This document shows positions 1 to 20,928 of a stretch of 64,000 nt of DNA, one piece after another; positions within the stretch are counted from its first letter, which is position 1, and each line of letters begins with the position of its first letter. Under the pieces are notes generated by a model. The model was not told where the DNA came from. It made no database searches and was given only the letters and a program-made list of their open reading frames with translations. A program made the position numbers and the translations under genes. The stretch comes from Candidatus Nanohaloarchaea archaeon (GTDB lineage: Archaea > Nanohalarchaeota > Nanosalinia > Nanosalinales > Nanosalinaceae), in NCBI GenBank assembly GCA_013343275.1, contig CP046106.1, positions 124,001-188,000 of the forward strand. The letters run 5' to 3'.

Positions 1-831
1 TTGACCTGGAGGGACATAGATTTCAATGGAGACAAAATGTGGGTGACTGTGGATGGCAAGACAGGGGAGAGAACCATCCCTGTAAAGACTTCCATGCCTG
101 TTATGAAAGAGCTATGGGAGGAAAGCAATGCCTCACTGGATGACCCTGTCTTCTTCAAGCAGAATAGAACCTATTGCTGTCCCAAATGCTCAGGAGAAGT
201 CAACTTAGCTTCAAGCAACACCACTAAAGAATACAAGAAATACAAATGCCCTGCCTGTGAATGGGAAGGAGACTATTCTCAGGTAGAGAAAGAAGTTCAA
301 CCACTTACAGATAATGCAGTGAGAAGAATCCTGGAGAGAACTGTAGAAAGAGCAGGCCTAAATAATGAGCTTGATGATAATCCTCATGACTTTTTCAGGA
401 AAGCCAGAGCTATATACAAGGTTAGAATAGGGAATACAGAGCATCAGCTCAGAGCTTTCTTTGGATGGAGTGAAACCAGTGATGCACCAAAACACTACAT
501 TGCCCTGGTAAAAGAAGATCTAGAAAAGGCCCTGGCAGAGGAATATGGAGAAGAAGTAGAGTATGAAAATGGATATGATGAAGATGCATTAAGGCCTGTA
601 GAATGTGAGAACTGTGGCAAGATCTGCTCTGCTACTGAAGACATCTGCAAAGACTGTGGTAATGGATTGACAGAGCAAGGAGAAGAACTCACTCAAGATA
701 GTTCAGATGATCAGGATATGAGAGATTCCTTCATTGATATTGCCAGGGAGAGAGGGATGGATACAGAGGACTTTGATGAGATGCTAGACATGTCTGTAGC
801 AGAGTTCATGGAGTTCATGGCAGAAAATTAA
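1..831 (+). CDS. Tyrosine recombinase (integrase), 5'-truncated by window edge
   Basis: C-terminal catalytic part of a phage/plasmid-type tyrosine integrase. The frame is open from base 1 and starts in the strand that normally follows the first catalytic Arg (TWRDID), so the N-terminal DNA-binding domain and that Arg lie outside the window. Visible are a KTGERTIPV strand, the box-II region NPHDFFRKARA (His129, Arg133) and FGWSETSDAPKHYI with the presumed nucleophile Tyr166, the layout of haloarchaeal integrases. A zinc finger is inserted in the catalytic domain (Cys60/63, Cys83/86) and a second follows the tyrosine (Cys202/205, Cys216/219), before an acidic tail. The His-Arg spacing is HxxxR instead of the usual HxxR. 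It would catalyse integration/excision of the element that extends to its right. The attachment site was not found. Confidence 0.88.
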   Translation: MTWRDIDFNGDKMWVTVDGKTGERTIPVKTSMPVMKELWEESNASLDDPVFFKQNRTYCCPKCSGEVNLASSNTTKEYKKYKCPACEWEGDYSQVEKEVQPLTDNAVRRILERTVERAGLNNELDDNPHDFFRKARAIYKVRIGNTEHQLRAFFGWSETSDAPKHYIALVKEDLEKALAEEYGEEVEYENGYDEDALRPVECENCGKICSATEDICKDCGNGLTEQGEELTQDSSDDQDMRDSFIDIARERGMDTEDFDEMLDMSVAEFMEFMAEN

Positions 832-3774: not shown

Positions 3775-4391
3775 CTCTCTTTGTCGAAGAAGGACTCCAG
3801 ATCTGCAGTTGCCTTAACCTTCTCTGTGGTAGTTCCTTGATTGTCTCTTATATTGAATTTCAGGGTGAATGTGAGGGCCTTAAAATCTTCCACAATTTTT
3901 CCATGATGTCTCACTGCTCCTGCAGGGAGAACTACTTTTCCTCTTATATGATCTAAGCTCTGAATAGTGTCTCCAATACCTTTGCTCTTTCTGCGAATCT
4001 TTTCCTCTTTTATCTGCAAGGTATTAGAGGTTATCTCTTTTTCCTGCTTGGGTGTAACCTCTACATCTGCTAAGTCTACTCTGACTACTTTCCCTTTCAT
4101 CTCTCCATGGTTTACTGCCTTGAATGGTAGAGCGTATTTTCCTGGATAATCTTTCTCCCAGTTAGGTTTGCCTTCAGATCTTATCTTTAGCTCATCTCCT
4201 GGTTGAATCTCTATATCTGATGATGGTTTCTTGAAGTGGTTGAGGTATAGAGATGCAGATACTATTCCAAAAGTCAAGATTGAGAGGAGGGAGCTATAGT
4301 TCTCCCAGACTCCAGGGAGGAAAATATTAACTAGAATTAGTAAAACTACTAAACATCCAATTCCTCCAAGAATTATCCTGTCTGAGTCCAT
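3771..4391 (-). CDS. Two-helix membrane protein with beta-rich domain
   Basis: Protein of 206 aa. Two hydrophobic segments (about 6-26 and 32-50) are followed by about 150 residues of beta-rich sequence with many charged residues (PGDELKI, GKVVRVDLADVEV, TFTLKFNIRD), consistent with an immunoglobulin-like domain. I do not recognise the family. Similar architecture (N-terminal helices plus beta sandwich) recurs in this window at 15690-16256. It overlaps the nuclease-like gene by 4 bp at the 3' ends. Confidence 0.65.
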   Translation of the reverse strand: MDSDRIILGGIGCLVVLLILVNIFLPGVWENYSSLLSILTFGIVSASLYLNHFKKPSSDIEIQPGDELKIRSEGKPNWEKDYPGKYALPFKAVNHGEMKGKVVRVDLADVEVTPKQEKEITSNTLQIKEEKIRRKSKGIGDTIQSLDHIRGKVVLPAGAVRHHGKIVEDFKALTFTLKFNIRDNQGTTTEKVKATADLESFFDKES

Positions 4392-4525
4392 GGGCGTAAT
4401 TTTGGAGACAAGACTTTACCTTCTTTGGGTAGGGGTTGGAGGCCAGATAGGTGCATAAACAAGATCAAGGAATGAATTATAGTAGGAATAAAGGGTAGGA
4501 AATACTTAGTTCTCTCATTCAAGGA
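4392..4525. other. Short intergenic stretch in element
   Basis: No gene, RNA or clear repeat recognised. It separates the two-helix membrane protein from the 3' end of the ATPase operon. Confidence 0.4.
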
Positions 4526-4846
4526 TTAGGCCTTGATTTTAGTCCACTGGTTTCTTGGATTCTTATGCTCTGAGTCAATGCCTTCTATATACTGAGTTAG
4601 CTTGCCTTTTTCTCTCCTGAAACTATCCTGCTCTATCTCACCAAACCAGACCTGCCTATAACCTCTCTGACCTTTCTTTACAATCATCAAATTATACTTG
4701 CCAGTTCCAAAACGATCTCTCACTTTCTTAACCAGTTCAGATTCCCTCTTTATCCTACTATCATCTATCCTGATAGTATCTATGTTCTTGAACTGCTTAG
4801 GACTTAGCTCTTTAGCCACTATCAGTTTAGCATTGTTATCTGCCAT
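4526..4846 (-). CDS. Small element protein, unknown
   Basis: Protein of 106 aa, basic and charged, with a likely compact alpha/beta fold (strand YNLMIVKK, then GYRQVWFGEI, then a charged helix). No family recognised. It is the last gene of the minus-strand operon that carries the HerA/FtsK-like ATPase. Confidence 0.65.
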   Translation of the reverse strand: MADNNAKLIVAKELSPKQFKNIDTIRIDDSRIKRESELVKKVRDRFGTGKYNLMIVKKGQRGYRQVWFGEIEQDSFRREKGKLTQYIEGIDSEHKNPRNQWTKIKA

Positions 4847-4863
4847 GATGACACCTTCTCAAA

Positions 4864-5037
4864 TTATATTTTCTTTTTTGATTTGGAGATCTCTGGCTTC
4901 CAGGTCTTCTCATGTGCGTGCGTATGCGTGGATAACCAGGATTTTTCTTTGGCTGATTCAGTGCTGATGATGTTGAGGGTTTCTCCAGGAAGGGCCTCCA
5001 GGAGGAGAGGGCTGTTGATGTCATACAGATAGCTCAT
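4864..5037 (-). CDS. Small ORF after the ATPase gene (57 aa)
   Basis: Short frame beginning MSYLYDINSPLL and ending KSKKKI, overlapping the 3' end of the ATPase gene by 17 bp. Its amino-acid usage (balanced, acidic/hydrophobic first half) is protein-like, unlike the Ser/Arg/Pro-rich product of the competing frame at 4836-5024. Function unknown. A real but unproven small gene of the ATPase operon. Confidence 0.45.
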   Translation of the reverse strand: MSYLYDINSPLLLEALPGETLNIISTESAKEKSWLSTHTHAHEKTWKPEISKSKKKI

Positions 5038-6499
5038 AGAAAACTTCTCTTCCTTCTCTGGTTTTCTCTATCAATCCTTCTTCTCTCCAGTCTGACAGGT
5101 GATTTCTGGCCATTGTCTCTCCTATATCCATTACTTGCTCCACTTTCTTTCTCTTGAACTTTTGCTCCTTGACAAGCTCTCCTGGAATGCTCACATAGTC
5201 ATTGGAGTTCTCTCCATCGCTCTCTTGCTCCTTGATCTTCTCCTCTACTCTCTCATTATGCTCTTCTACACTCTCCTGGATCTCTTCTCTTACCTGTTTA
5301 ACTTCATTATCCCAGTTCCTGAGTTCTCCATCAAGTTTCAACCATTCCTGTCTAAAGTTCTCTCCAGGTTCTCTATGCCTGGCTCTTGTAGGATAACTCT
5401 TGAAGTCTTTAATCAATGTCTCTGGAGTCCAGAGATAGAAATAATGATCTTCAAGGCCTTTGATCCTCTCCTTATCCTGTTTGGAAAACTCTTCTTTAGT
5501 TCTCTCATCAAGAACTGTCTGGATTCCTTTAGCAGTATTCAACCTGCCAGTAAACAGGTAGTTTAACTGACTTCTAGCTATATCTGAAAGCTCCTCAGGG
5601 TTCTGAGTATCAATGAAAACACTTACTCCCATCTGCCTGCTTTCCTTCAAGAACTCCTCTATAATCTCTCTAAAGGCCTCTGAACTACCTCCATTACCAT
5701 TATCATCTTTCAACAGTTTATGACCTTCTCTAATGAAGATAACAAGGTAAGGCTCTATATCCCCCTGTTTCAATAGTTCCAAGATTCTCTGCAAGATATG
5801 GACTACAGTGAACTTAGTGATTTTATCTGACTGAACTTGAGCAGTCTCCAATATCATTCTCCTGTCCTCACTGTTCAACTCCTTAAACAAGTTGAGTGAG
5901 AGAGGACTGTTTTCACTGGTTACAAGCCTGTGATCTGCAAGCTCTATCAGTGAGTGCTGTATAGGTCTCTTACCTCTCTTAGTTGGAGAACTGATCTTGA
6001 TCCCTGAACTACTTTCTATATAGTCCTGATCTGGTAGCTCCTCAGAGAGCTTCAATAGATCTGCAACATTAGGACTATCCATCTCCTGAATATCGTTTAT
6101 CATGGCGTTAAACAAGGCCTCATGGCTTTGTGATACATCTCCAAGAAGTGCTTTCAAGGAGTCCTCTGAGAGAGTCTTGATAGGTATAGTGAATGGTTGA
6201 ACTGGCTCTGGTTGAGTAAGATTCAAATCAGGTGTAAGTGGTTTGTAGATCTTTCCAGGAAAGGCCTTAGGCTCAGGGTTCTCAGGGTCCTGCCATACCT
6301 CATAGTTTGATCCTTCAGGTAGAACTGAGAATGAGCCTTCTATCTTTGATGAGAATATATCTACTACTTTGACATTCTCCTTTTCCTGGAATACTTCCAT
6401 AGCTCTCTCCAGGATCATTGATTTACCAGTTCCACTTTGTCCTGTTACTCCTGCTCTAACAGGTTTCTTACTGGGATGTGGGAATCTGACCTGTTTCAT
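5021..6499 (-). CDS. HerA/FtsK-like DNA-translocating ATPase with winged-helix tail
   Basis: P-loop ATPase of 492 aa. Walker A is GQSGTGKS at residues 20-27. The Walker B strand YLVIFIREGHK (251-261) has an Arg where the usual Asp precedes the catalytic Glu. The sensor strand SVFIDTQNPEEL (293-304) matches the T-Q-x-P signature of HerA/VirD4/archaeal-virus packaging ATPases. A coiled coil (about 385-430) joins a C-terminal winged helix (about 435-490). A role in moving element DNA (packaging, conjugation or partition) is inferred. The start ATG overlaps the stop of the upstream gene by 4 bp. It lies in one operon with the small proteins at 6496-7699. Confidence 0.75.
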   Translation of the reverse strand: MKQVRFPHPSKKPVRAGVTGQSGTGKSMILERAMEVFQEKENVKVVDIFSSKIEGSFSVLPEGSNYEVWQDPENPEPKAFPGKIYKPLTPDLNLTQPEPVQPFTIPIKTLSEDSLKALLGDVSQSHEALFNAMINDIQEMDSPNVADLLKLSEELPDQDYIESSSGIKISSPTKRGKRPIQHSLIELADHRLVTSENSPLSLNLFKELNSEDRRMILETAQVQSDKITKFTVVHILQRILELLKQGDIEPYLVIFIREGHKLLKDDNGNGGSSEAFREIIEEFLKESRQMGVSVFIDTQNPEELSDIARSQLNYLFTGRLNTAKGIQTVLDERTKEEFSKQDKERIKGLEDHYFYLWTPETLIKDFKSYPTRARHREPGENFRQEWLKLDGELRNWDNEVKQVREEIQESVEEHNERVEEKIKEQESDGENSNDYVSIPGELVKEQKFKRKKVEQVMDIGETMARNHLSDWREEGLIEKTREGREVFYELSV

Positions 6500-7859: not shown

Positions 7860-8156
7860 TCATCTTTCTGGAATATTGATCTTGTTGAGGACTATCTCCC
7901 CTTTCTCAGTGGTTTTGTAGAAAGTCCTACCATCTGCCTCACCTGTTTCCTTAACTAGGCCTTTTTCCTGCAGTTTCTCTACATGGTATTCTATGGTCTG
8001 ATGGGCCTTTCTGAGGTCTTTTGCAATGCTTGAGATGTAATCCTGATTCTCCAAGTGAGCTAATACTTTCCTGGTAGTTCTGCCTCCTACTTCTCTCACC
8101 AATGCATCAAAGTTGGTTTCCTCAGTGTTTCCAGAGTCTTTACCTATACTACTCAT
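7860..8156 (-). CDS. Winged-helix transcriptional regulator (ArsR-like)
   Basis: ATG start chosen at 8156 (MSSIGKDSGN); a TTG at 8177 is in frame but less likely. The 98-aa product has a classic winged helix: ALVREVGGRTTRKVLAHLENQDYI (helices 1-2), a recognition helix around KAHQTIEYHVEKLQEKG, and a wing ending RTFYKTTEKGE. The pattern belongs to the ArsR/MarR-like HTH group common in haloarchaea. Set between mcm and the ATPase operon, it probably controls element genes; palindromes flank its 3' end. Confidence 0.8.
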   Translation of the reverse strand: MSSIGKDSGNTEETNFDALVREVGGRTTRKVLAHLENQDYISSIAKDLRKAHQTIEYHVEKLQEKGLVKETGEADGRTFYKTTEKGEIVLNKINIPER

Positions 8157-8250
8157 GGAACTCACCCCAATTCTCAACTCTATCTACTGATTTTCTCACT
8201 TGATTCTGAACTGTATCTGAGTGGTTGAATGACTCCATAATCTTGATCAC

Positions 8251-10515
8251 CTAGACTTTTGCAACCTTTCCAGGTTCAGGCTCAAAGAACTCGCCCTCAC
8301 TTTTCAGAGATTTTAAGGCCTCCTCTATCTTCTCTTCATCTGCATCCAGAGACTCTATAACTTCTTGCTCATCTTTCTGGCTATCTCCAACTTTCTCCCT
8401 AACTAGCTCCATTACTCCTTTCTTAACCTGAACTGAATCAGTGTTATCAGAGCTTTCAGAACTATCCAAGCCTTGAATCTGTTCTACTGTTATAGGCTCT
8501 CCTTCTCTGAAATCCATAGAACATCTGCATTTAGTGAAAAGCTCTATAGCCCTCTGAGCATCAATCTTCTGGGCTTTATCATCCAGTCTAGACTTTGCAA
8601 ACATCAAAGTGAGCTGGATGAGGTTCCTGATCATTCTTGGGCTTTCAGACTTAACCTCTGCCTTAATGTTGTTAGCCTCAGCATCTGCTAGATTTCCTTT
8701 GATGAATTTGTTGATCAGGTTTCCTGCATCCTCAGTTAATACTGGCTCTTTCTCCTTTGCTAGGCCTCTGTAAATGACCTGAGTCTGCTTATCCATTCCT
8801 TCATCTCTCTCACTGCCTCCTGTTTCCTGGTATCCCTGAATCATCTCATTTGCTATCTCAGAGAGATTCTGTTGCCTGATTCCATAGATCAAAGAGAATC
8901 TATCCTTGAAACCTTGAACCATCTCAGGCAGGTAACTATGTAGTTCCTCATACTGCCCTGTTTCAAAGTCTAGTTTCTCAGTAAAGTTACCAGTAGCTAT
9001 TATAGTGGCTCTACCATTCAGTTCAACATTCTGTGAGGCCTTATCAATAGGAAATTTACCTCTCTCCATAGCAGTGTTAAGCCTGCCTAGTTGCTCACTT
9101 CCTATCTTATCCATCTCATCTACTGAAAGAACTCCTTGATCTGCATAGACTAGCTTTCCTGCTCTGATCTCATAGCCTCCATTATCTAGGTTCTCAACTG
9201 TGGCAGTAAGGCCTACTCCTGTAGAGTTATTATCTGCATAGTATGTGTTTGAGAAAGTCTCCTGGATGTATTCCTGCAGATCTGATTTAGCTAACCCTGG
9301 ATTAGCAACTATCAGGGAATGGATTCTGTCATCATCTCCTCTAGATTCATTCTCTACTCCTCCTATCAGGCTTGCACCCATCACCTCTTTCAAGGTCTGA
9401 GCATCCACAATGTGAGGAGCAAGGCCTAGAGCAAACTCTTTGAAGGCATATGTATCAGGACTATTATTCCAGACCTTAACCTTCTCTTTTACCTCTTCTA
9501 TATCCTCTTGAGAAACTTCCTGCATCTGATCCTTTCTATCCAACCTCTTGAAACTCATTACATCTAGAACAGGATCTAACTCTGTCTGATCATTCTGTCT
9601 AGGAACTCCTCTGATAACTCCTGAAACTCTTACTTTCCTACCTGGAGTAAAGGCCTGCTTAGTATCCTCACTGATATTCTCCTTCTTGATAAAGGCCTCT
9701 AAAGGCTTATTTTCTACAGTCTGAGTTGAAAGAGTAATCTCCTTAACATCCTGAAAGTTTCTATCAACAAGGTCAAATTTCCTGCTACCACATTGACACT
9801 TGTAAGGAGATTTCAGCTTATCTCCATCCTGCTCCTTCTCATACAGGTCTCCACACTTAGAACATTCAAACTCTGCAGAAACTACTTTGGTATAGGAATC
9901 TTTCTCTCCCTCTACCATGGCCTCAATCGTTACAAACTCTCCAATATTCCTGTTATCTCTGGCCTCAGAGATCGTTTTCTCATAGTAATCAACATCTACA
10001 TCAAGCTCCAAGGTAAGACCAGGCAGGTTATCTGATAGATCCTTCTCTATCTCATCCAGAAGATCTATGAACTCATCAGTATTTTCCTCTGCCCAGTCCA
10101 AGATCTCAAACCTTATGCTCTCCAATTCACTCAGGCTTAACTCATAGACTCCATCATCTAATAAGGCCTGAGAAACCTTTTCTCTACCTTCTAAGGATAA
10201 ATAGTTCTTGATATCGCTCCTGATGTCCTTGTAACCTTCAGGTTTGCTGACCTCTTGCTCATCAGGGTTGAGAAGAGTTTCTGCAACATTCTCTCCTCTC
10301 TCATTAATCTCATAGTGGCCTCTCTCAGGTTTGTCCAGGAGGTTTCTCTCATCCTTACTTTCCAGTTTTCTCACTATCTTTGAGAAAGCAGGCTTAGATC
10401 CCTCATAGTTATGATCCTCTCTGAACTTCTCATAAAGATCTGATAAACTTGCAGGAGAGCCTATCTCATCCTGTTTTTCGTAAAACCAGGTAAGGAATTG
10501 GTCCTGTCTGTTCAT
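8251..10515 (-). CDS. mcm: Element-encoded MCM replicative helicase
   Basis: AAA+ hexameric helicase of 754 aa from the chosen start. ATG 10515 is preceded by a GGAGG ribosome-binding site 5 nt upstream, whereas the earlier ATG at 10557 would place the start beside the repeat array. Order of parts: an N-terminal winged helix unusual for MCM (about 1-90); the OB fold with a zinc motif (CSKCG near 220, CQCG near 241); the AAA+ core with Walker A ANPGLAKSD (near 405), Walker B LSVDEMDKI (near 463), sensor 1 IIATGNF, and the Arg-finger/sensor 2 region SPRMIRN (near 628); and a C-terminal winged helix. It unwinds DNA at the element origin. Mobile archaeal elements often carry their own mcm. Length and motifs indicate a functional protein. 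Confidence 0.93.
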   Translation of the reverse strand: MNRQDQFLTWFYEKQDEIGSPASLSDLYEKFREDHNYEGSKPAFSKIVRKLESKDERNLLDKPERGHYEINERGENVAETLLNPDEQEVSKPEGYKDIRSDIKNYLSLEGREKVSQALLDDGVYELSLSELESIRFEILDWAEENTDEFIDLLDEIEKDLSDNLPGLTLELDVDVDYYEKTISEARDNRNIGEFVTIEAMVEGEKDSYTKVVSAEFECSKCGDLYEKEQDGDKLKSPYKCQCGSRKFDLVDRNFQDVKEITLSTQTVENKPLEAFIKKENISEDTKQAFTPGRKVRVSGVIRGVPRQNDQTELDPVLDVMSFKRLDRKDQMQEVSQEDIEEVKEKVKVWNNSPDTYAFKEFALGLAPHIVDAQTLKEVMGASLIGGVENESRGDDDRIHSLIVANPGLAKSDLQEYIQETFSNTYYADNNSTGVGLTATVENLDNGGYEIRAGKLVYADQGVLSVDEMDKIGSEQLGRLNTAMERGKFPIDKASQNVELNGRATIIATGNFTEKLDFETGQYEELHSYLPEMVQGFKDRFSLIYGIRQQNLSEIANEMIQGYQETGGSERDEGMDKQTQVIYRGLAKEKEPVLTEDAGNLINKFIKGNLADAEANNIKAEVKSESPRMIRNLIQLTLMFAKSRLDDKAQKIDAQRAIELFTKCRCSMDFREGEPITVEQIQGLDSSESSDNTDSVQVKKGVMELVREKVGDSQKDEQEVIESLDADEEKIEEALKSLKSEGEFFEPEPGKVAKV

Positions 10516-10557
10516 TGTCCTCCAAACCTCCTCTGAGAGAAATGCCCATGGCCCCAT

Positions 10558-10690
10558 GTGGTTAAGATGGTTAATTGGGTTAATTGAGGTAAATAAACCA
10601 TCTTGTTAGGCCTTGATAGTAGATTTTTCTGGGAATTAACCTCCTTTCTTAACCTAATTAACCTAATTAACCACCTACCCCCTAAGGTGT
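10558..10690. repeat. Inverted arrays of 9-bp iterons; candidate element origin
   Basis: GGTTAA occurs at 10560, 10569 and 10578, exactly 9 bp apart (units GGTTAAGAT, GGTTAATTG, GGTTAATTG). The complementary TTAACC occurs at 10636 and then at 10649, 10658 and 10667, again 9 bp apart (units TTAACCTAA). The two arrays face each other across about 50 bp of A/T-rich DNA containing a smaller inverted pair (GGTAAATAAACC). Position directly upstream of mcm, iteron form and A/T-rich centre are typical of plasmid-type replication origins. An operator for mcm is the alternative, and both may be true. Confidence 0.6.
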
Positions 10691-10708
10691 TTCTATATAG
10701 TATTTCTT

Positions 10709-11044
10709 TCATTGGATCAAATCACCATTACTTGGAATACGCTTTCTGTGGTTGACTGGAGCTTTTTGCAGGCCTACAGTTCTTCTGCAGTTAGGACAGG
10801 CCCAGTTCAAAAGGTCTTTCTGAGAATCTAGTTGATCTATCAGGTGTTCAGATGCAGGATCTTGGTTAAGGAATTGCTTGAGCTTCTTCTCAAAAACTGC
10901 TCTATGAAATACTGCCTCACATTCTGGGCATTGCAGTCTTCTAGGAGCTTCAAATCTGAACAGCTCCAGGACTCTTTCAGTTTTCTCACTGGACTTGAAC
11001 TCAAAGTTTGTTGGAGTCTCTACCATTGTCCTCATCAGAATCAC
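10709..11044 (-). CDS. Zinc-ribbon protein upstream of mcm
   Basis: Protein of 111 aa with two Cys pairs (CPEC near 39-42, CPNC near 83-86) about 40 residues apart and separated by a charged helix, consistent with one zinc-binding module. No family recognised. ATGA overlap with the ribbon-helix-helix gene upstream places it in the same transcript, which then reads into the iteron region and mcm. It may be a DNA-binding or replication accessory protein. Confidence 0.65.
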   Translation of the reverse strand: MILMRTMVETPTNFEFKSSEKTERVLELFRFEAPRRLQCPECEAVFHRAVFEKKLKQFLNQDPASEHLIDQLDSQKDLLNWACPNCRRTVGLQKAPVNHRKRIPSNGDLIQ

Positions 11045-11274
11045 CTCTCCATCTCTGGAGCTGTCTGTTCTCCTGGTTTTGAGTTCATTAATTGTCTGAA
11101 GGCCATGTCAAGAAGATCTCTAACTACTTGGTTTCTGGATTTGTCTTCTGAGGTCTCTGCCAGATCTCTGATTATCTCATCTTGGTAGTTATCTATGTAG
11201 AAACCTACTTTGACTTTCTCTGATTCCTTATTCTGTAATGTAAAGCCTTTTTTAGGGTCTCTAAGCTGATACAT
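11041..11274 (-). CDS. Ribbon-helix-helix DNA-binding protein
   Basis: Protein of 77 aa. A strand (KVKVGFYID) followed by two helices (NYQDEIIRDLAETS; SRNQVVRDLLDMAFRQ) fits the ribbon-helix-helix fold of CopG/ParD/archaeal plasmid copy-control repressors. It is the likely ligand of the CTAACAT operator repeats in the divergent promoter at 11,429-11,467 and therefore probably represses its own operon and possibly mcm. Confidence 0.65.
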   Translation of the reverse strand: MYQLRDPKKGFTLQNKESEKVKVGFYIDNYQDEIIRDLAETSEDKSRNQVVRDLLDMAFRQLMNSKPGEQTAPEMER

Positions 11275-11428: not shown

Positions 11429-11517
11429 CTAACATCATCTTATATTCGAACTAACATAGATGTTAGTAAAATAGAACTTCTTTAGAGGGTTTTTTCCTGT
11501 GAGAAAGACTTAAAATA
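11429..11517. promoter_or_regulatory. Divergent promoter with CTAACAT operator
   Basis: A perfect palindrome with 8-bp arms, ACTAACAT-AG-ATGTTAGT, lies at 11,450-11,467. A further half-site CTAACAT lies at 11,429-11,435, 22 bp (two helical turns) from the matching arm. The two sites flank the minus-strand TATA-like element. On the plus strand TTAAAATA at 11,510-11,517 is about 25 bp before the ATG at 11,539. Likely bound by the ribbon-helix-helix protein. Confidence 0.6.
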
Positions 11518-12752: not shown

Positions 12753-13142
12753 TTATCTCTTTCTATATCTCCACTTATTCTCTCCAGGCATCAAAGGGGA
12801 TAGAATCTTCTTATTGTAGTTCTTACTACTTTGATTTAGCTTCTTCAATCCTTTTTTAGCAACACCTGCAGAGAATCCATAGTCAGCTCCTAAAGCAGTT
12901 GCTAAAGTCTTGAGATTCTTCATTGCTAGACCCATTCTGGTTACTTCAGGACCTATTCTGTCAGTATTATGTTTGAATGTCAGAAGGAACTTATCTTCTT
13001 CTGAGTGTAGCCTGCCTGGTAGATAGTGTCTGTTCAGTGCTAGAGTTCCTTTACTATTCTTCGCTATTTCTAATCTGCCTGCAGGTTTGGCCTCTTGGGG
13101 AACTTTCTCTTTTATTCCAATTTTATTGTAAATTCTTCTCAT
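12753..13142 (-). CDS. Basic protein paired with AbiTii-like gene
   Basis: Very basic protein of 129 aa (Lys/Arg-rich, pI clearly above its acidic neighbours) with no recognised fold; nucleic-acid binding is possible. The start ATG overlaps the stop of the AbiTii-like gene by 4 bp, so the two are co-translated. In an otherwise acidic proteome its charge stands out and fits an RNA/DNA-binding partner or toxin. Confidence 0.6.
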   Translation of the reverse strand: MRRIYNKIGIKEKVPQEAKPAGRLEIAKNSKGTLALNRHYLPGRLHSEEDKFLLTFKHNTDRIGPEVTRMGLAMKNLKTLATALGADYGFSAGVAKKGLKKLNQSSKNYNKKILSPLMPGENKWRYRKR

Positions 13143-13930
13143 TCTTGAACCTCCTTTGCTCTAGAAACAAAGTCGTTAATTTCTCTCCTAGCTCCATCTA
13201 AGAGAGATTCTAACTCGCTTACTTTGGTTATGTAAGGAACTTTTTCTCCTGGGTTTACTCCAAGCTCATCCACCATTACCTGCATTGGAGGTGCTTTCAT
13301 CATTATTTTGTCTGACTCAGCTTTCTCAACTGCTGACTCTACCATATCTAGAGGTTGGGAAATATACATTTCTAGAGGTAGCTCCTCTATCTGTCCACTA
13401 TCGTCCATTAATCTAAATTTCATGGATAATTTCCTGTAATCTTTGTAGTAGTGAGCAGAAGTATCTTCTACCTCTGTTACTCCACTGCTTTCTTCATCTC
13501 TGAATCCATGAACCTCTTTCTCCAGCCATTCAACTTCTTTTTTCATATCTAACTGCTTAGCAAGCCTTAAAGCCATTCTAGCTATAGTGGAGACATCTTC
13601 ATCTGAGTCTATCTTGCTTTCAATTTTCTTTAGAAGTTTTCTTTCATCAGAGGTCTTTTCTTCTTCCTCTTTTCCAGATTCTTCCTCAAATTTCTGCTCA
13701 ATCCTGTCAAAGTTAATGTCTCCTTGGGCTTGGAATGCGTTAACTCCTTCAGCATCTTCAAATATCTGCTCTTGAGACCTATCTATCAGGTTTTTGATCT
13801 CATAACCTACTTTACCTACTCCAAGAAATCCTAGAGTGGTAACAATTAGAGATAGTATTCCTATGGCATGCTCTTGTAGGTATACTGCTAGTGAAATATT
13901 TTCACATCCTTTGGGAATTTTAATATTCAA
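13139..13930 (-). CDS. Membrane-anchored AbiTii-like abortive-infection protein
   Basis: Protein of 263 aa. A hydrophobic helix (about 22-42) is followed by FQAQGDINFDRIEQ, a linker of the kind seen in effector-associated proteins. A helical domain (about 95-145) then carries LLKKIESKI, ALRLAKQLDMKKEVEWLEKEVHGF, matching the AbiTii N-terminal signature (a leading helix, then a Lys-rich helix ending in W-L-x-x-E-x-x-G). A beta/alpha C-terminal part follows (YRKLSMKFRLMDDS). AbiTii domains occur in abortive-infection and phage-defence loci. Coupled by 4-bp overlap to the basic protein downstream. Defence function is inferred from the domain. Confidence 0.65.
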   Translation of the reverse strand: MNIKIPKGCENISLAVYLQEHAIGILSLIVTTLGFLGVGKVGYEIKNLIDRSQEQIFEDAEGVNAFQAQGDINFDRIEQKFEEESGKEEEEKTSDERKLLKKIESKIDSDEDVSTIARMALRLAKQLDMKKEVEWLEKEVHGFRDEESSGVTEVEDTSAHYYKDYRKLSMKFRLMDDSGQIEELPLEMYISQPLDMVESAVEKAESDKIMMKAPPMQVMVDELGVNPGEKVPYITKVSELESLLDGARREINDFVSRAKEVQE

Positions 13931-16399: not shown

Positions 16400-16854
16400 A
16401 CAGTTATGGTTACTGTTAAAAAGTTAAGAACTTATTGCGTTAATAGAAGGTAGGAAGGCCTTATAATAAACAGCGAGGTTGAAGAAGGGCCGGTCCACTA
16501 CTCTACGTGTTCATTTACATTACTCGCTTTCTGAACCACTTCTTCGTCAACCTAAATAAACCGCTCGAAAAACTACGCTCAACCACGGGCGAAGAGGTTC
16601 CGGCAAGTGGGGAAAAGCGATTCTTCTCTTCAGAGCGAGAGAACAAGCTATCAAGAGAAGGAGCTGAATGATGCCTATGACTTAGGAAACTCTGTGAGCA
16701 GGTTCCCTCCTCTGCGAGGATTAGATCCTATGCGCGCGCAGACCTCAAAATTTCTGGAATCTTCGTAATAAATCAGAAGTTTACGTTCTATGCGCATAGG
16801 CGGGCGTAGAAATAATGAGAAATCTTATAGTATTTATTTTATACTCTTGTAGAT
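16400..16854. other. Gene-free junction between acquired block and Mrr locus
   Basis: No credible ORF. It contains one AGGCCT at 16,456, the first after a 5.7-kb gap. Near-complementary arms AGGTTGAAGAAG and CTTCTTCGTCAACCT are separated by about 50 nt (possible structured RNA). A copy of AAGGGCCGGTCCA lies at 16,485-16,497, repeated at 17,903. Local palindromes include TATGCGCATA near 16,790. It is likely a recombination junction or the right border of the acquired block. Confidence 0.4.
16485..16497 (+). repeat. 13-bp direct repeat, copy 1
   Basis: AAGGGCCGGTCCA, identical to copy 2 at 17,903-17,915. The pair brackets the Mrr nuclease and its small partner. Confidence 0.4.
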
Positions 16855-17556
16855 ATGGGGCAGAGTAGGAGACAAAACGAGCCAGAAGTAGAGGATATTA
16901 ATTTAGATGAAATACCTCCAATTGGAGCTCCTATTCTTTCACTAGGCCTTCTCTATGCGGCAGTTACAGTAGGTTTTGGAGATCTAATGATAAACTTAGT
17001 AGTCGGTGGCGCAGGAGTAGTGCTCTTGGGATTTTTCGCTTTCAAGCTTGGAACATTGTACAAACAGCGAGGCCCTAAAAGAGCAGTTAGATGGGCGACA
17101 ACCGCGCCCGTCGATAGAGTAGAAGACTATTCTCTCGACCTCCAAACAAGCTCGGGAGTAGAGAAAACAGAGGAAGGGATAACTCTAGAGCACTTGAGAG
17201 AGATAGATCCTTATGATTTCGAAGAGTTCGTAGCGAAGGTATGGAGAGGTAGAGGATATGAAGCAGAAGTAACACAGGGAAGTCAGGATCGAGGAATCGA
17301 TGTTGTAGCAGAGAAATCAGAACCATACAACGAGAAAGAGCTTATACAGGTAAAGCGGAAAGGAGAAGGAAACAAGGTTAGCGCTCCAACAGTTCGGAAA
17401 TGTTCTGGACTGAAAAACAAGAACGGGGTCGATAAAGTATTGGTAGTTACTTCAACAGACTTCACAGCTCAGGCAAAGGAAGAAGCCGAAGATTATAACT
17501 TAAAATTAGTAGATGGACGTAAACTTTTGGAATTATACGAAGATAACGTAGAATAA
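16855..17556 (+). CDS. Membrane-tethered Mrr-family restriction endonuclease
   Basis: Protein of 233 aa. Two hydrophobic segments (about 26-42 and 46-69) are followed by a linker. The Mrr catalytic domain (about 115-230) has a DPYDFEEFVAKVW helix, a G-Y-E-A-E-V strand, QDRGIDVVAE with Asp149, and the IQVKR strand with Gln165 and Lys167, i.e. the D...QxK active site of Mrr enzymes. The family cuts modified or foreign DNA; tethering to the membrane by two helices is common in haloarchaeal relatives and suggests action at the site of DNA entry. The next gene follows by 17 bp. All catalytic residues are present. Confidence 0.85.
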   Translation: MGQSRRQNEPEVEDINLDEIPPIGAPILSLGLLYAAVTVGFGDLMINLVVGGAGVVLLGFFAFKLGTLYKQRGPKRAVRWATTAPVDRVEDYSLDLQTSSGVEKTEEGITLEHLREIDPYDFEEFVAKVWRGRGYEAEVTQGSQDRGIDVVAEKSEPYNEKELIQVKRKGEGNKVSAPTVRKCSGLKNKNGVDKVLVVTSTDFTAQAKEEAEDYNLKLVDGRKLLELYEDNVE

Positions 17557-17573
17557 TAGGTGAAAAATACTTT

Positions 17574-17816
17574 ATGGGAGTTGTAAAGCGCGACGGCAAA
17601 TGGAGACTTGAAAAGAAGAAAGAAGGAGTTTACCTAGTGACGGAGAGAGGCGAACAAAAGGCAAAAATCATTACAGGAGAATATGAGCCCTCAGGCCCAA
17701 TGAATGATGAGAGAAATGATATGATGTCCCAAGTGATAGAGGTTAGAGATTTCGAAGAGGCGAAGAAAGAGTTCAAGAGTTTCGCCTCAGGAGGATCTTC
17801 CGGAGGCCTTTTCTAA
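17574..17816 (+). CDS. Small partner protein of Mrr nuclease
   Basis: Protein of 80 aa. It has a beta-rich start (MGVVKRDGKWRLEKKKEGVY), a helix (DFEEAKKEFKSFA) and a Gly/Ser tail. No family recognised. It lies 17 bp after the Mrr gene on the same strand, so a partner or control role is possible. Confidence 0.6.
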   Translation: MGVVKRDGKWRLEKKKEGVYLVTERGEQKAKIITGEYEPSGPMNDERNDMMSQVIEVRDFEEAKKEFKSFASGGSSGGLF

Positions 17817-17902
17817 TGGAAATAATGGTATAACTATCTATGGATTTTGACAGCTTTGATGCCACTCAGAAGAAGAGGTTCATCTGAACACGTACCTCAG
17901 AT

Positions 17903-17915
17903 AAGGGCCGGTCCA
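17903..17915 (+). repeat. 13-bp direct repeat, copy 2
   Basis: AAGGGCCGGTCCA, identical to 16,485-16,497; see copy 1. Confidence 0.4.
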
Positions 17916-19810: not shown

Positions 19811-19909
19811 ACTCTGGATTTTCTACCTCTGATTTTATTATTTTGATTGTATCTGGGGAACGGTTTTTATACCTACGGACCTGATTTATTATTGTCCGGT
19901 GTCAAAACT

Positions 19910-20539
19910 ATGATAGGCCGTCTTAAAAAGTTAATATCTGATCTATTCAGCTCAACTGAACAGGATGACATAAGTATAGGCCTTTATGGTCCTCCAAACG
20001 CAGGTAAGTCCACGCTCGCTAACCAGATCTCCAAGGATTTAACAGGAGAGGAAATGAGCAATGTTTCGGAGGTGCCTCACGAAACCAGGGCTGTAGAGAA
20101 GAAGGAGCAGGTAACACTGGAAGCTGAGGACGGCCGGACGATCGACATGAATCTTCTGGACATGCCAGGTATTTCCACCAATGTAGATTTCCAGGACTTT
20201 ACAGAGCACGGCCTTGAAGAAGAGGAATCGAAGGATCGTGCAAAAGAAGCGACAAAAGGAATTGTAGAGGCTATCAAGTATCTTGATGATGTCGATGCAT
20301 GTCTTGTGATCTTTGATTCGACTGAGGATCCTTACACTCAGGTAAATGTTACTATAATTGGAAACTTGGAGGCCAAGGATATCCCGATCTTGATCCTGGC
20401 GAACAAGACGGACCTTGAGGATGCTGATCCTTCCAGAGTCCGTGATGCTTTCCCTCAACACCCTGTTCTGGAGGTTTCTGCGAAGGAAGGTGAAAATATT
20501 GACAAACTTTATCAGGAAATAATTGAAAGGTTAAGTTGA
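19910..20539 (+). CDS. Era-like small GTPase
   Basis: Start chosen at ATG 19,910 (MIGRLKKLIS); the frame is open upstream to 19,847 but that part is not GTPase-like. The 209-aa product has G1 GPPNAGKST, G3 DMPG, G4 NKTD and G5 SAK in normal order: a complete Era/Obg-type GTPase without extra domain. It is immediately followed by the DUF2073 gene (TGATG, 1-bp overlap) and a zinc-ribbon gene, a trio conserved in archaea. Ribosome- or RNA-related function is likely for the group. Confidence 0.85.
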   Translation: MIGRLKKLISDLFSSTEQDDISIGLYGPPNAGKSTLANQISKDLTGEEMSNVSEVPHETRAVEKKEQVTLEAEDGRTIDMNLLDMPGISTNVDFQDFTEHGLEEEESKDRAKEATKGIVEAIKYLDDVDACLVIFDSTEDPYTQVNVTIIGNLEAKDIPILILANKTDLEDADPSRVRDAFPQHPVLEVSAKEGENIDKLYQEIIERLS

Positions 20540-20928
20540 TGAGCGACGATGGAGTTACAATAGAATTTCTCTCAAGAGACAAGCTTTCCGGCCACGAGCT
20601 TGACGACAAGCTCGACTTGGTGCTGGAGAAGGTGAAGGACGACGCAGTCCTCGTACTTGAGGAAGGATGGACTCCTGAAGAAAAGCGTACGCTCATCACC
20701 GATGCAATGGAGCAGGTGGACGACGAATTCCCGGGAATCGAGTTCATGGGGCTTAACTCCGGTCAGTCAAGACTTGACAAGGCCCGTAATCTTGTATATG
20801 ACAAACTTTTCGATGAGAAACCGCGCAGAGGCCTGACAATTGTCGGTAACTCCCGTGTAATGGAGAAAATCAAGGAAGAGAGGGACGCTGTTTCGTTCCT
20901 CGCAAAACTTGAGAATGAAAAGGAGTAG
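20539..20928 (+). CDS. DUF2073-family protein, partner of the GTPase
   Basis: Protein of 129 aa from ATG 20,539. The pattern VTIEFLSRDKL, KVKDDAVLVLEEGWTPEEKRTLI, MEQVDDEFPGIEFM matches the archaeal DUF2073 family, found next to an Era-like GTPase and a zinc-ribbon protein. Its start overlaps the GTPase stop by 1 bp. The C-terminal part (RGLTIVGNSRVMEKIK) is typical of the family. Biochemical role not known to me. Confidence 0.72.
   Translation: MSDDGVTIEFLSRDKLSGHELDDKLDLVLEKVKDDAVLVLEEGWTPEEKRTLITDAMEQVDDEFPGIEFMGLNSGQSRLDKARNLVYDKLFDEKPRRGLTIVGNSRVMEKIKEERDAVSFLAKLENEKE

What the first reader, a model, noticed from the sequence alone, without database searches (positions are those of the whole stretch)
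10558..10690. Facing arrays of 9-bp iterons upstream of mcm
Seen: GGTTAA at 10,560/10,569/10,578 and TTAACC at 10,649/10,658/10,667, exact 9-bp period, inverted about an A/T-rich 50-bp centre. Established: plasmid origins often carry iterons next to the initiator/helicase gene. No Cdc6/Orc gene was recognised in this window, so a novel initiation route with MCM alone or with the RHH/zinc-ribbon protein is possible.
Basis: partly seen in the sequence, partly recalled or inferred. Interest (0 to 1): 0.66.

Follow-up and report, generated by a model that had tools for sequence, protein, structure and literature searches.

The report
Iteron origin of an archaeal mobile element
Two facing rows of short DNA repeats beside a virus-type copy of the MCM helicase gene are probably the replication start site of a 17 kb mobile element in a small archaeon, most likely read by that helicase itself, which matters because helicase and start-site recognition would then be one protein.

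Summary
The repeats are real: GGTTAA at 10560/10569/10578 facing TTAACC at 10649/10658/10667, plus one at 10636. No such facing array occurs elsewhere in the 64 kb window; tandem GGTTAA pairs occur nowhere else in the 916 kb genome.

They lie in the leader of a second, element-type mcm. The host has its own mcm and two Orc1/Cdc6 genes elsewhere. The element is about 17.2 kb, inserted at tRNA-Ile.

The only orthologous mcm found (40% identity) has another word (TGTGA) in the same place, facing, same 9-bp period. pMEFER01, pTN3 and Altivir_8 each have their only facing array within 0.6 kb of the mcm start. In the pTN3 family the sites keep their positions inside mcm while flanking letters change together (TTGAAC, GGAAC, CGAAC).

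This MCM has an extra N-terminal winged helix; the neighbouring RHH genes are not homologous between the two elements. Best reading: the element's origin, bound by the MCM itself, as in SaPI Rep or Cch2 (0.62; origin alone about 0.75). Main rival: operator of the mcm promoter. A 2026 preprint already proposed origin recognition by viral MCM wHTH domains; candidate cis sites and their co-variation are added here.

The parts
10560..10583 (+). left array: GGTTAA x3 at 9-bp period (10560, 10569, 10578); degenerate 4th copy AGGTAA at 10587-10592
10636..10672 (-). right array, facing: TTAACC at 10649, 10658, 10667 (9-bp period) plus an off-phase copy at 10636-10641
10584..10648 (.). 65-bp centre between the arrays, 35% G+C (element mean 39%); overlaps the off-phase TTAACC at 10636
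8251..10515 (-). element-type MCM helicase, 754 aa from the ATG at 10515 (longest ORF starts at 10557); Walker A and B, arginine finger and zinc ribbon present, C-terminal winged helix resembles that of host MCM
10270..10515 (-). N-terminal winged-helix domain of the MCM (residues 1-82), absent from host MCM: candidate iteron reader
   Evidence: pLDDT 88.5, pTM 0.80; Foldseek: DtxR/MntR winged helices, probability 1.00
10519..10523 (-). GGAGG ribosome-binding site for the mcm start at 10515
   Evidence: direct reading
10693..10700 (-). TATA-like CTATATAG; its expected transcription start (~25 bp downstream) would fall in the right array, so initiator or repressor binding there could control mcm
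   Evidence: direct reading; inference
10709..11035 (-). small four-cysteine zinc-ribbon-like protein
   Evidence: weak zinc-ribbon matches
11041..11274 (-). ribbon-helix-helix protein, 77 aa; no homologue in 27 relatives of the order
5021..6499 (-). HerA/FtsK-type ATPase of the element
7860..8177 (-). winged-helix protein downstream of mcm
1..831 (+). C-terminal part of the element's tyrosine integrase (whole gene G000:C1:123395-124831), next to tRNA-Ile(GAT) at C1:123260-123334
16487..16497 (+). right attachment site: GGGCCGGTCCA, copy of the 3' end of tRNA-Ile; right end of the 17.2 kb element
17905..17915 (+). second copy of the attachment core, right end of a 1.4 kb cassette with an Mrr-type endonuclease

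Best explanation
The facing arrays are the replication origin of a ~17.2 kb integrative element (a plasmid- or provirus-like element sitting at tRNA-Ile). After excision, the element's own MCM, which carries an extra N-terminal winged helix, binds the 9-bp half-sites. The two opposed rows would seat two MCM assemblies facing each other, which open the DNA between them and recruit the host replisome, without an element-borne Orc1/Cdc6. Because the array also covers the expected start of the mcm transcript, the same binding would probably repress mcm, as in iteron plasmids. Shown by computation: the array, its uniqueness, the second mcm, the winged helix (model), the element borders, and the conserved architecture with changed letters in relatives. 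Inferred: binding by MCM, origin activity, two-assembly loading, autoregulation.
For: Unique array in genome and window. Element context: second mcm beside a host mcm, integrase at tRNA-Ile, att copies, different insert at the same tRNA in a congener. The only orthologous mcm in 28 genomes has facing TGTGA half-sites at a 9-bp period 34 bp upstream of its start. In pMEFER01, pTN3 and Altivir_8 the sole facing array of the whole record lies within 0.6 kb of the mcm start; none lies near the three host mcm genes used as controls. In the pTN3 family eight half-sites keep their positions inside mcm over 100 to 56% protein identity while the flank changes in concert, TTGAAC to GGAAC to CGAAC, and a candidate HTH helix changes with it: TKNMVYRVKSDF, TKSMIARMRKDF, TKSMIDRMRWDF. 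The array there is coding DNA, not a promoter. N-terminal winged helix modelled in this MCM and detected by profile in those of pMEFER01, Altivir_8 and G009. The RHH proteins are not shared. Precedent: SaPI Rep and Cch2 initiator helicases bind iterons beside their gene (PMC7581432); viral MCM wHTH proposed for origin recognition (PMC12934983); putative origins beside rep genes in pT26-2 plasmids (PMC6972569).
Against: No binding or replication data. 12 of 17 MCM-element contexts scanned had no array near mcm by the strict definition, including pFS01 and the second mcm of G009 (which has a winged helix); several of these were only partly fetched. The array overlaps a plausible promoter, so an operator role alone could explain it here. 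The centre is not unusually A/T-rich. GC skew does not prove an origin: the detrended minimum is at 11455, 0.8 kb away, but gene strand confounds it. The helix-to-iteron correspondence rests on three classes, and the helix in pTN3 MCM was picked by eye (no Pfam match).
Confidence: 0.62

Rival explanations
1. The arrays are only an operator: the upstream RHH (or zinc-ribbon, or wHTH) protein coats the 9-bp repeats over the mcm promoter and represses mcm; the origin lies elsewhere.
For: CTATATAG at 10693-10700 places the expected start site inside the right array; an RHH gene lies just upstream in both this element and G003; RHH proteins are known to bind tandem short repeats (own knowledge); direct GGTTAACG arrays sit before a regulator-like gene in many prophages.
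Against: The RHH proteins of the two elements are not homologous although both elements have facing 9-bp arrays; in pTN3 the array is inside the mcm coding region, and in pMEFER01 and Altivir_8 it is 370-580 bp from mcm; no RHH gene was identified at those loci.
Confidence: 0.25
2. The arrays are a partition (centromere-like) site for an RHH adaptor protein.
For: RHH gene nearby; parC-type sites are short repeat arrays flanking a promoter (own knowledge).
Against: No ParA- or ParM-type ATPase was recognised among the element genes scanned; the association across elements is with mcm.
Confidence: 0.05
3. Chance or low-complexity repeat without function.
For: GGTTAA-like 9-bp repeats also occur in unrelated bacterial contigs.
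Against: No facing 6-mer array in 64 kb of shuffled sequence; unique in the genome; conserved architecture in relatives.
Confidence: 0.03

Closest known systems
Thermococcales virus and pTN3-type MCMs with N-terminal wHTH (PMC12934983, 2026 preprint)
   Same: Element-borne MCM with an extra N-terminal DNA-binding domain, no element Orc1/Cdc6 recognised, integrase, HerA/FtsK ATPase
   Different: Other host lineage and other N-terminal sequence; in the text passages read, the preprint names no cis sites, whereas here the half-sites are located and shown to co-vary
pT26-2 plasmid family incl. pMEFER01 (PMC6972569)
   Same: MCM as putative Rep, putative origin next to rep gene in 12 of 15
   Different: That study found no origin consensus; the common feature proposed here is the facing-array architecture, not the letters
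SaPI Rep and SCCmec Cch2 initiator helicases (PMC7581432)
   Same: Helicase binds short iterons beside its own gene and is thought to load as two hexamers
   Different: Those bind by a C-terminal domain and belong to other helicase families; this is an archaeal MCM with an N-terminal winged helix
Iteron plasmids of bacteria (RepA/RepE type)
   Same: Tandem short repeats beside the initiator gene, probably overlapping its promoter
   Different: Iterons there are mostly direct and about 17-22 bp with a helicase loaded separately (own knowledge); here 9-bp, facing, with initiator and helicase in one protein

Membership tests
Archaeal MCM-encoding integrative element (pTN3/pT26-2 kind, broad sense) | MCM distinct from the host's | tested here: met
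Archaeal MCM-encoding integrative element (pTN3/pT26-2 kind, broad sense) | tyrosine integrase and att duplication at a tRNA | tested here: met
Archaeal MCM-encoding integrative element (pTN3/pT26-2 kind, broad sense) | shared core genes or capsid genes of pT26-2 or pTN3 families | not tested
   core genes were not compared; only MCM, integrase and a HerA/FtsK ATPase were recognised; Pfam and PHROGs scans named no capsid gene
Initiator-helicase with cognate iteron origin (SaPI Rep / Cch2 mode) | short repeats beside the helicase gene | tested here: met
Initiator-helicase with cognate iteron origin (SaPI Rep / Cch2 mode) | helicase carries a sequence-specific DNA-binding domain | tested here: inconclusive
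   winged-helix fold predicted; binding not tested
Initiator-helicase with cognate iteron origin (SaPI Rep / Cch2 mode) | binding and origin activity shown | not testable with these tools
   needs gel shift and replication assay
SaPI Rep / Cch2 protein family | homology of the helicase | tested here: not met
   it matches Pfam MCM and solved archaeal/eukaryotic MCMs
Orc1/Cdc6-dependent archaeal origin | orc1/cdc6 gene next to the origin | tested here: not met
   Orc1/Cdc6 genes at C1:196 kb and 736 kb only; the array is at 134.6 kb

The most novel reading that the evidence does not exclude
Archaeal mobile elements widely use an MCM that is initiator and helicase in one, reading facing 9-11 bp iterons that co-evolve with its added winged helix, so that MCM loading needs no Orc1/Cdc6.
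Probability: 0.5. Interest if true: 0.75.

Novelty: new variant of a known kind. Interest (0 to 1): 0.6.

Why it matters
How a replicative MCM can be placed on DNA without Orc1/Cdc6 is an open question. The half-sites located here, and the natural specificity variants in the pTN3 family (TTGAAC, GGAAC, CGAAC with matching helix changes), make the published hypothesis of origin recognition by MCM wHTH domains directly testable by domain and iteron swaps. It also gives a simple rule for finding origins of archaeal plasmids and viruses whose origin sequences share no consensus.

Tried and rejected
Search for relatives of this MCM in genome contigs and viral contigs found none, likewise for pTN3, Altivir_8 and pMEFER01 MCMs. 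An alignment of eight diverse MCMs was too divergent to search with. The exact iteron word was sought in viral and genome collections: 12 hits with facing arrays and 68 viral contigs with a triple repeat, none with an MCM by HMM, so the word itself carries no family signal; many hits are Bacteroidetes tandem repeats or prophage promoter arrays. A 206-residue model of the MCM N-terminus was poor and its fold matches not significant; the 90-residue model was good. Profile comparison of the G009 N-terminus with the two-sequence profile was not significant. GC skew was judged uninformative because gene strand dominates. An A/T-rich unwinding centre was not supported. A 126-nt single-strand fold is stable (z -3.3) but follows trivially from facing repeats.

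Full report
What is there. GGTTAA stands at 10560, 10569 and 10578 and TTAACC at 10649, 10658 and 10667, each row with an exact 9-bp period, the rows facing each other; one more TTAACC is at 10636 and a degenerate copy at 10587. The pair GGTTAANNNGGTTAA is found four times in the 915,886-base genome, all here, with none for the reversed control pattern. A general scan for facing arrays of any word found one place in the 64 kb window, this one, and none in shuffled windows with 6-mers. The centre is 65 bp with 35% G+C, which is ordinary for the element.

Where it lies. The mcm ORF runs to 10557, but the likely start is the ATG at 10515 behind GGAGG; the orthologue in G003 aligns from that methionine. 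The array is therefore in the 5' leader, 45-157 bp upstream. On the mcm strand a TATA-like CTATATAG at 10693-10700 would start transcription inside the right array (inference). Upstream, in the same direction, lie a four-cysteine protein (10709-11035) and a ribbon-helix-helix protein (11041-11274).

It belongs to a mobile element. The host mcm is another gene at C1:111.7 kb, and two Orc1/Cdc6 genes are at 196 and 736 kb. A tyrosine integrase lies directly behind tRNA-Ile(GAT) at C1:123.3 kb. The tRNA end GGGCCGGTCCA recurs at window 16487-16497 and 17905-17915. The first copy closes a 17,163-bp element of 39.3% G+C, against 45% for the window; composition changes at 16.5-17 kb. The congener G001 carries different DNA at the same tRNA, with synteny resuming at window 18.6 kb, so this is an integration hotspot. 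The element also encodes a HerA/FtsK-type ATPase and an AbiTii-like gene.

Relatives. In the 28 genomes held for this order only G003 has an MCM with the same N-terminal region (40% identity over the protein). Its mcm leader has no GGTTAA array. It has TGTGA/TCACA half-sites in facing pairs with the same 9-bp period, 34-137 bp upstream of the start, and this is the only facing array in the 20 kb fetched. Of the other element genes compared, only the integrase is recognisably shared (28.6% identity). The RHH genes of the two elements do not find each other.

Other MCM elements. Seventeen MCM-element contexts and three host mcm loci were scanned. Five elements have an array close to mcm, each the only one in its record: this one, G003, pMEFER01 (TTCGG, 11 bp, 373 bp from the mcm start), pTN3 (TTTGAAC, 9 bp, 245 bp inside the gene) and Altivir_8 (GATATA, 10 bp, 584 bp away). 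Eleven had no array at all by this definition; the virus BJ1 gave five 5-mer hits, all at least 2 kb from mcm. For the three elements available as complete records, a random position within 0.6 kb of the mcm start would have a chance of roughly 5-7% each (own estimate).

Concerted change. Five Thermococcales genomes carry pTN3-type MCMs. Aligned DNA shows GAAC/GTTC cores at the same eight positions in all five (one shifted by 1 bp). The bases next to the core change together: TTGAAC/GTTCAA in three close relatives, GGAAC/GTTCC at every site in the 73% relative, CGAAC/GTTCG at nearly every site in the 56% relative. The encoded linker diverges just there while its surroundings stay conserved, as expected if DNA sites drive the protein sequence. 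A segment that looks like an HTH recognition helix differs by class: TKNMVYRVKSDF, TKSMIARMRKDF, TKSMIDRMRWDF. pTN3 has a second cluster, with CGAAC, in the neighbouring gene TNaP3-05. This is the behaviour of binding sites tracking a binder, and because the array is coding DNA an operator is an unlikely explanation there.

The candidate reader. Residues 1-90 of the element MCM are predicted with good confidence as a winged helix (pLDDT 88.5, pTM 0.80; the alignment holds only two sequences and the other four models were weaker); the best solved-structure matches are DtxR/MntR-type winged helices (probability 1.00, E about 5e-3). Host MCM alignments begin only after about residue 109 of the 768-aa ORF. 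Winged-helix profiles are also found at the N-terminus of the MCMs of pMEFER01 and Altivir_8 and G009.

Mechanism. Most likely, MCM subunits bind the two opposed rows through the winged helix, two assemblies face each other, open the DNA and recruit the host replisome; binding over the transcription start would limit mcm expression. Array, context, fold model and co-variation are shown; binding, loading and replication are inferred. The main rival is a pure operator for the RHH protein; it explains the window but not pTN3, pMEFER01 or Altivir_8.

Known background. SaPI Rep and Cch2 are initiator helicases with iterons next to their gene (PMC7581432). Putative origins of pT26-2 plasmids lie near rep genes without a consensus (PMC6972569). 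A 2026 preprint proposed that viral MCMs of Thermococcales recognise origins through N-terminal wHTH domains (PMC12934983). What is added here is the candidate cis sites, their shared architecture across unrelated words, and their concerted change. Since the general idea is published and no experiment was possible, it is rated a new variant of a known kind.

Noticed in passing
L089 (pTN3) 4406-4900 and 4086-4164; L165-L169: Half-site arrays inside the mcm gene of pTN3-type elements change letters in concert (TTGAAC, GGAAC, CGAAC) at fixed positions; pTN3 has a second CGAAC array in the upstream gene TNaP3-05.
   Followed up: partly
L064 2483-2585: IMG/VR phage contig with GGTTAATTA x3 facing TTAACCCTA x3 directly behind a large replication gene that reads like a P4/D5-type primase-helicase and before terminase-like genes: the same word and layout beside a replication gene in a bacterial phage.
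   Followed up: partly
window 16487-17915: Two tandem copies of the tRNA-Ile att core bound a 1.4 kb cassette with an Mrr-type endonuclease (PADLOC PDC-S02/type IV-like): a possible separate defence cassette at the hotspot.
   Followed up: no
window 13139-13930: AbiTii-like gene inside the element.
   Followed up: no
G000:C1:113763-114509 (L040 7763-8509): Gene next to host mcm encodes a protein that reads like an OB-fold/RPA protein and whose C-terminal ~75 residues resemble the C-terminal winged helix of MCM; similar hits occur near mcm in most relatives.
   Followed up: no
L042 13748-15751: The G003 element MCM lacks the C-terminal winged helix that the window MCM has.
   Followed up: no
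L108, L109, L125, L131, L136, L140, L141, L143, L158 and others: Viral contigs with direct GGTTAACG arrays at 9 bp just before a gene starting M(T/S)D(V)MW(S)I: probably a promoter or operator array of a prophage regulator.
   Followed up: no
window 19847-20928: Era-like GTPase and OapB-family (origin-associated protein) genes sit just right of the integration hotspot.
   Followed up: no
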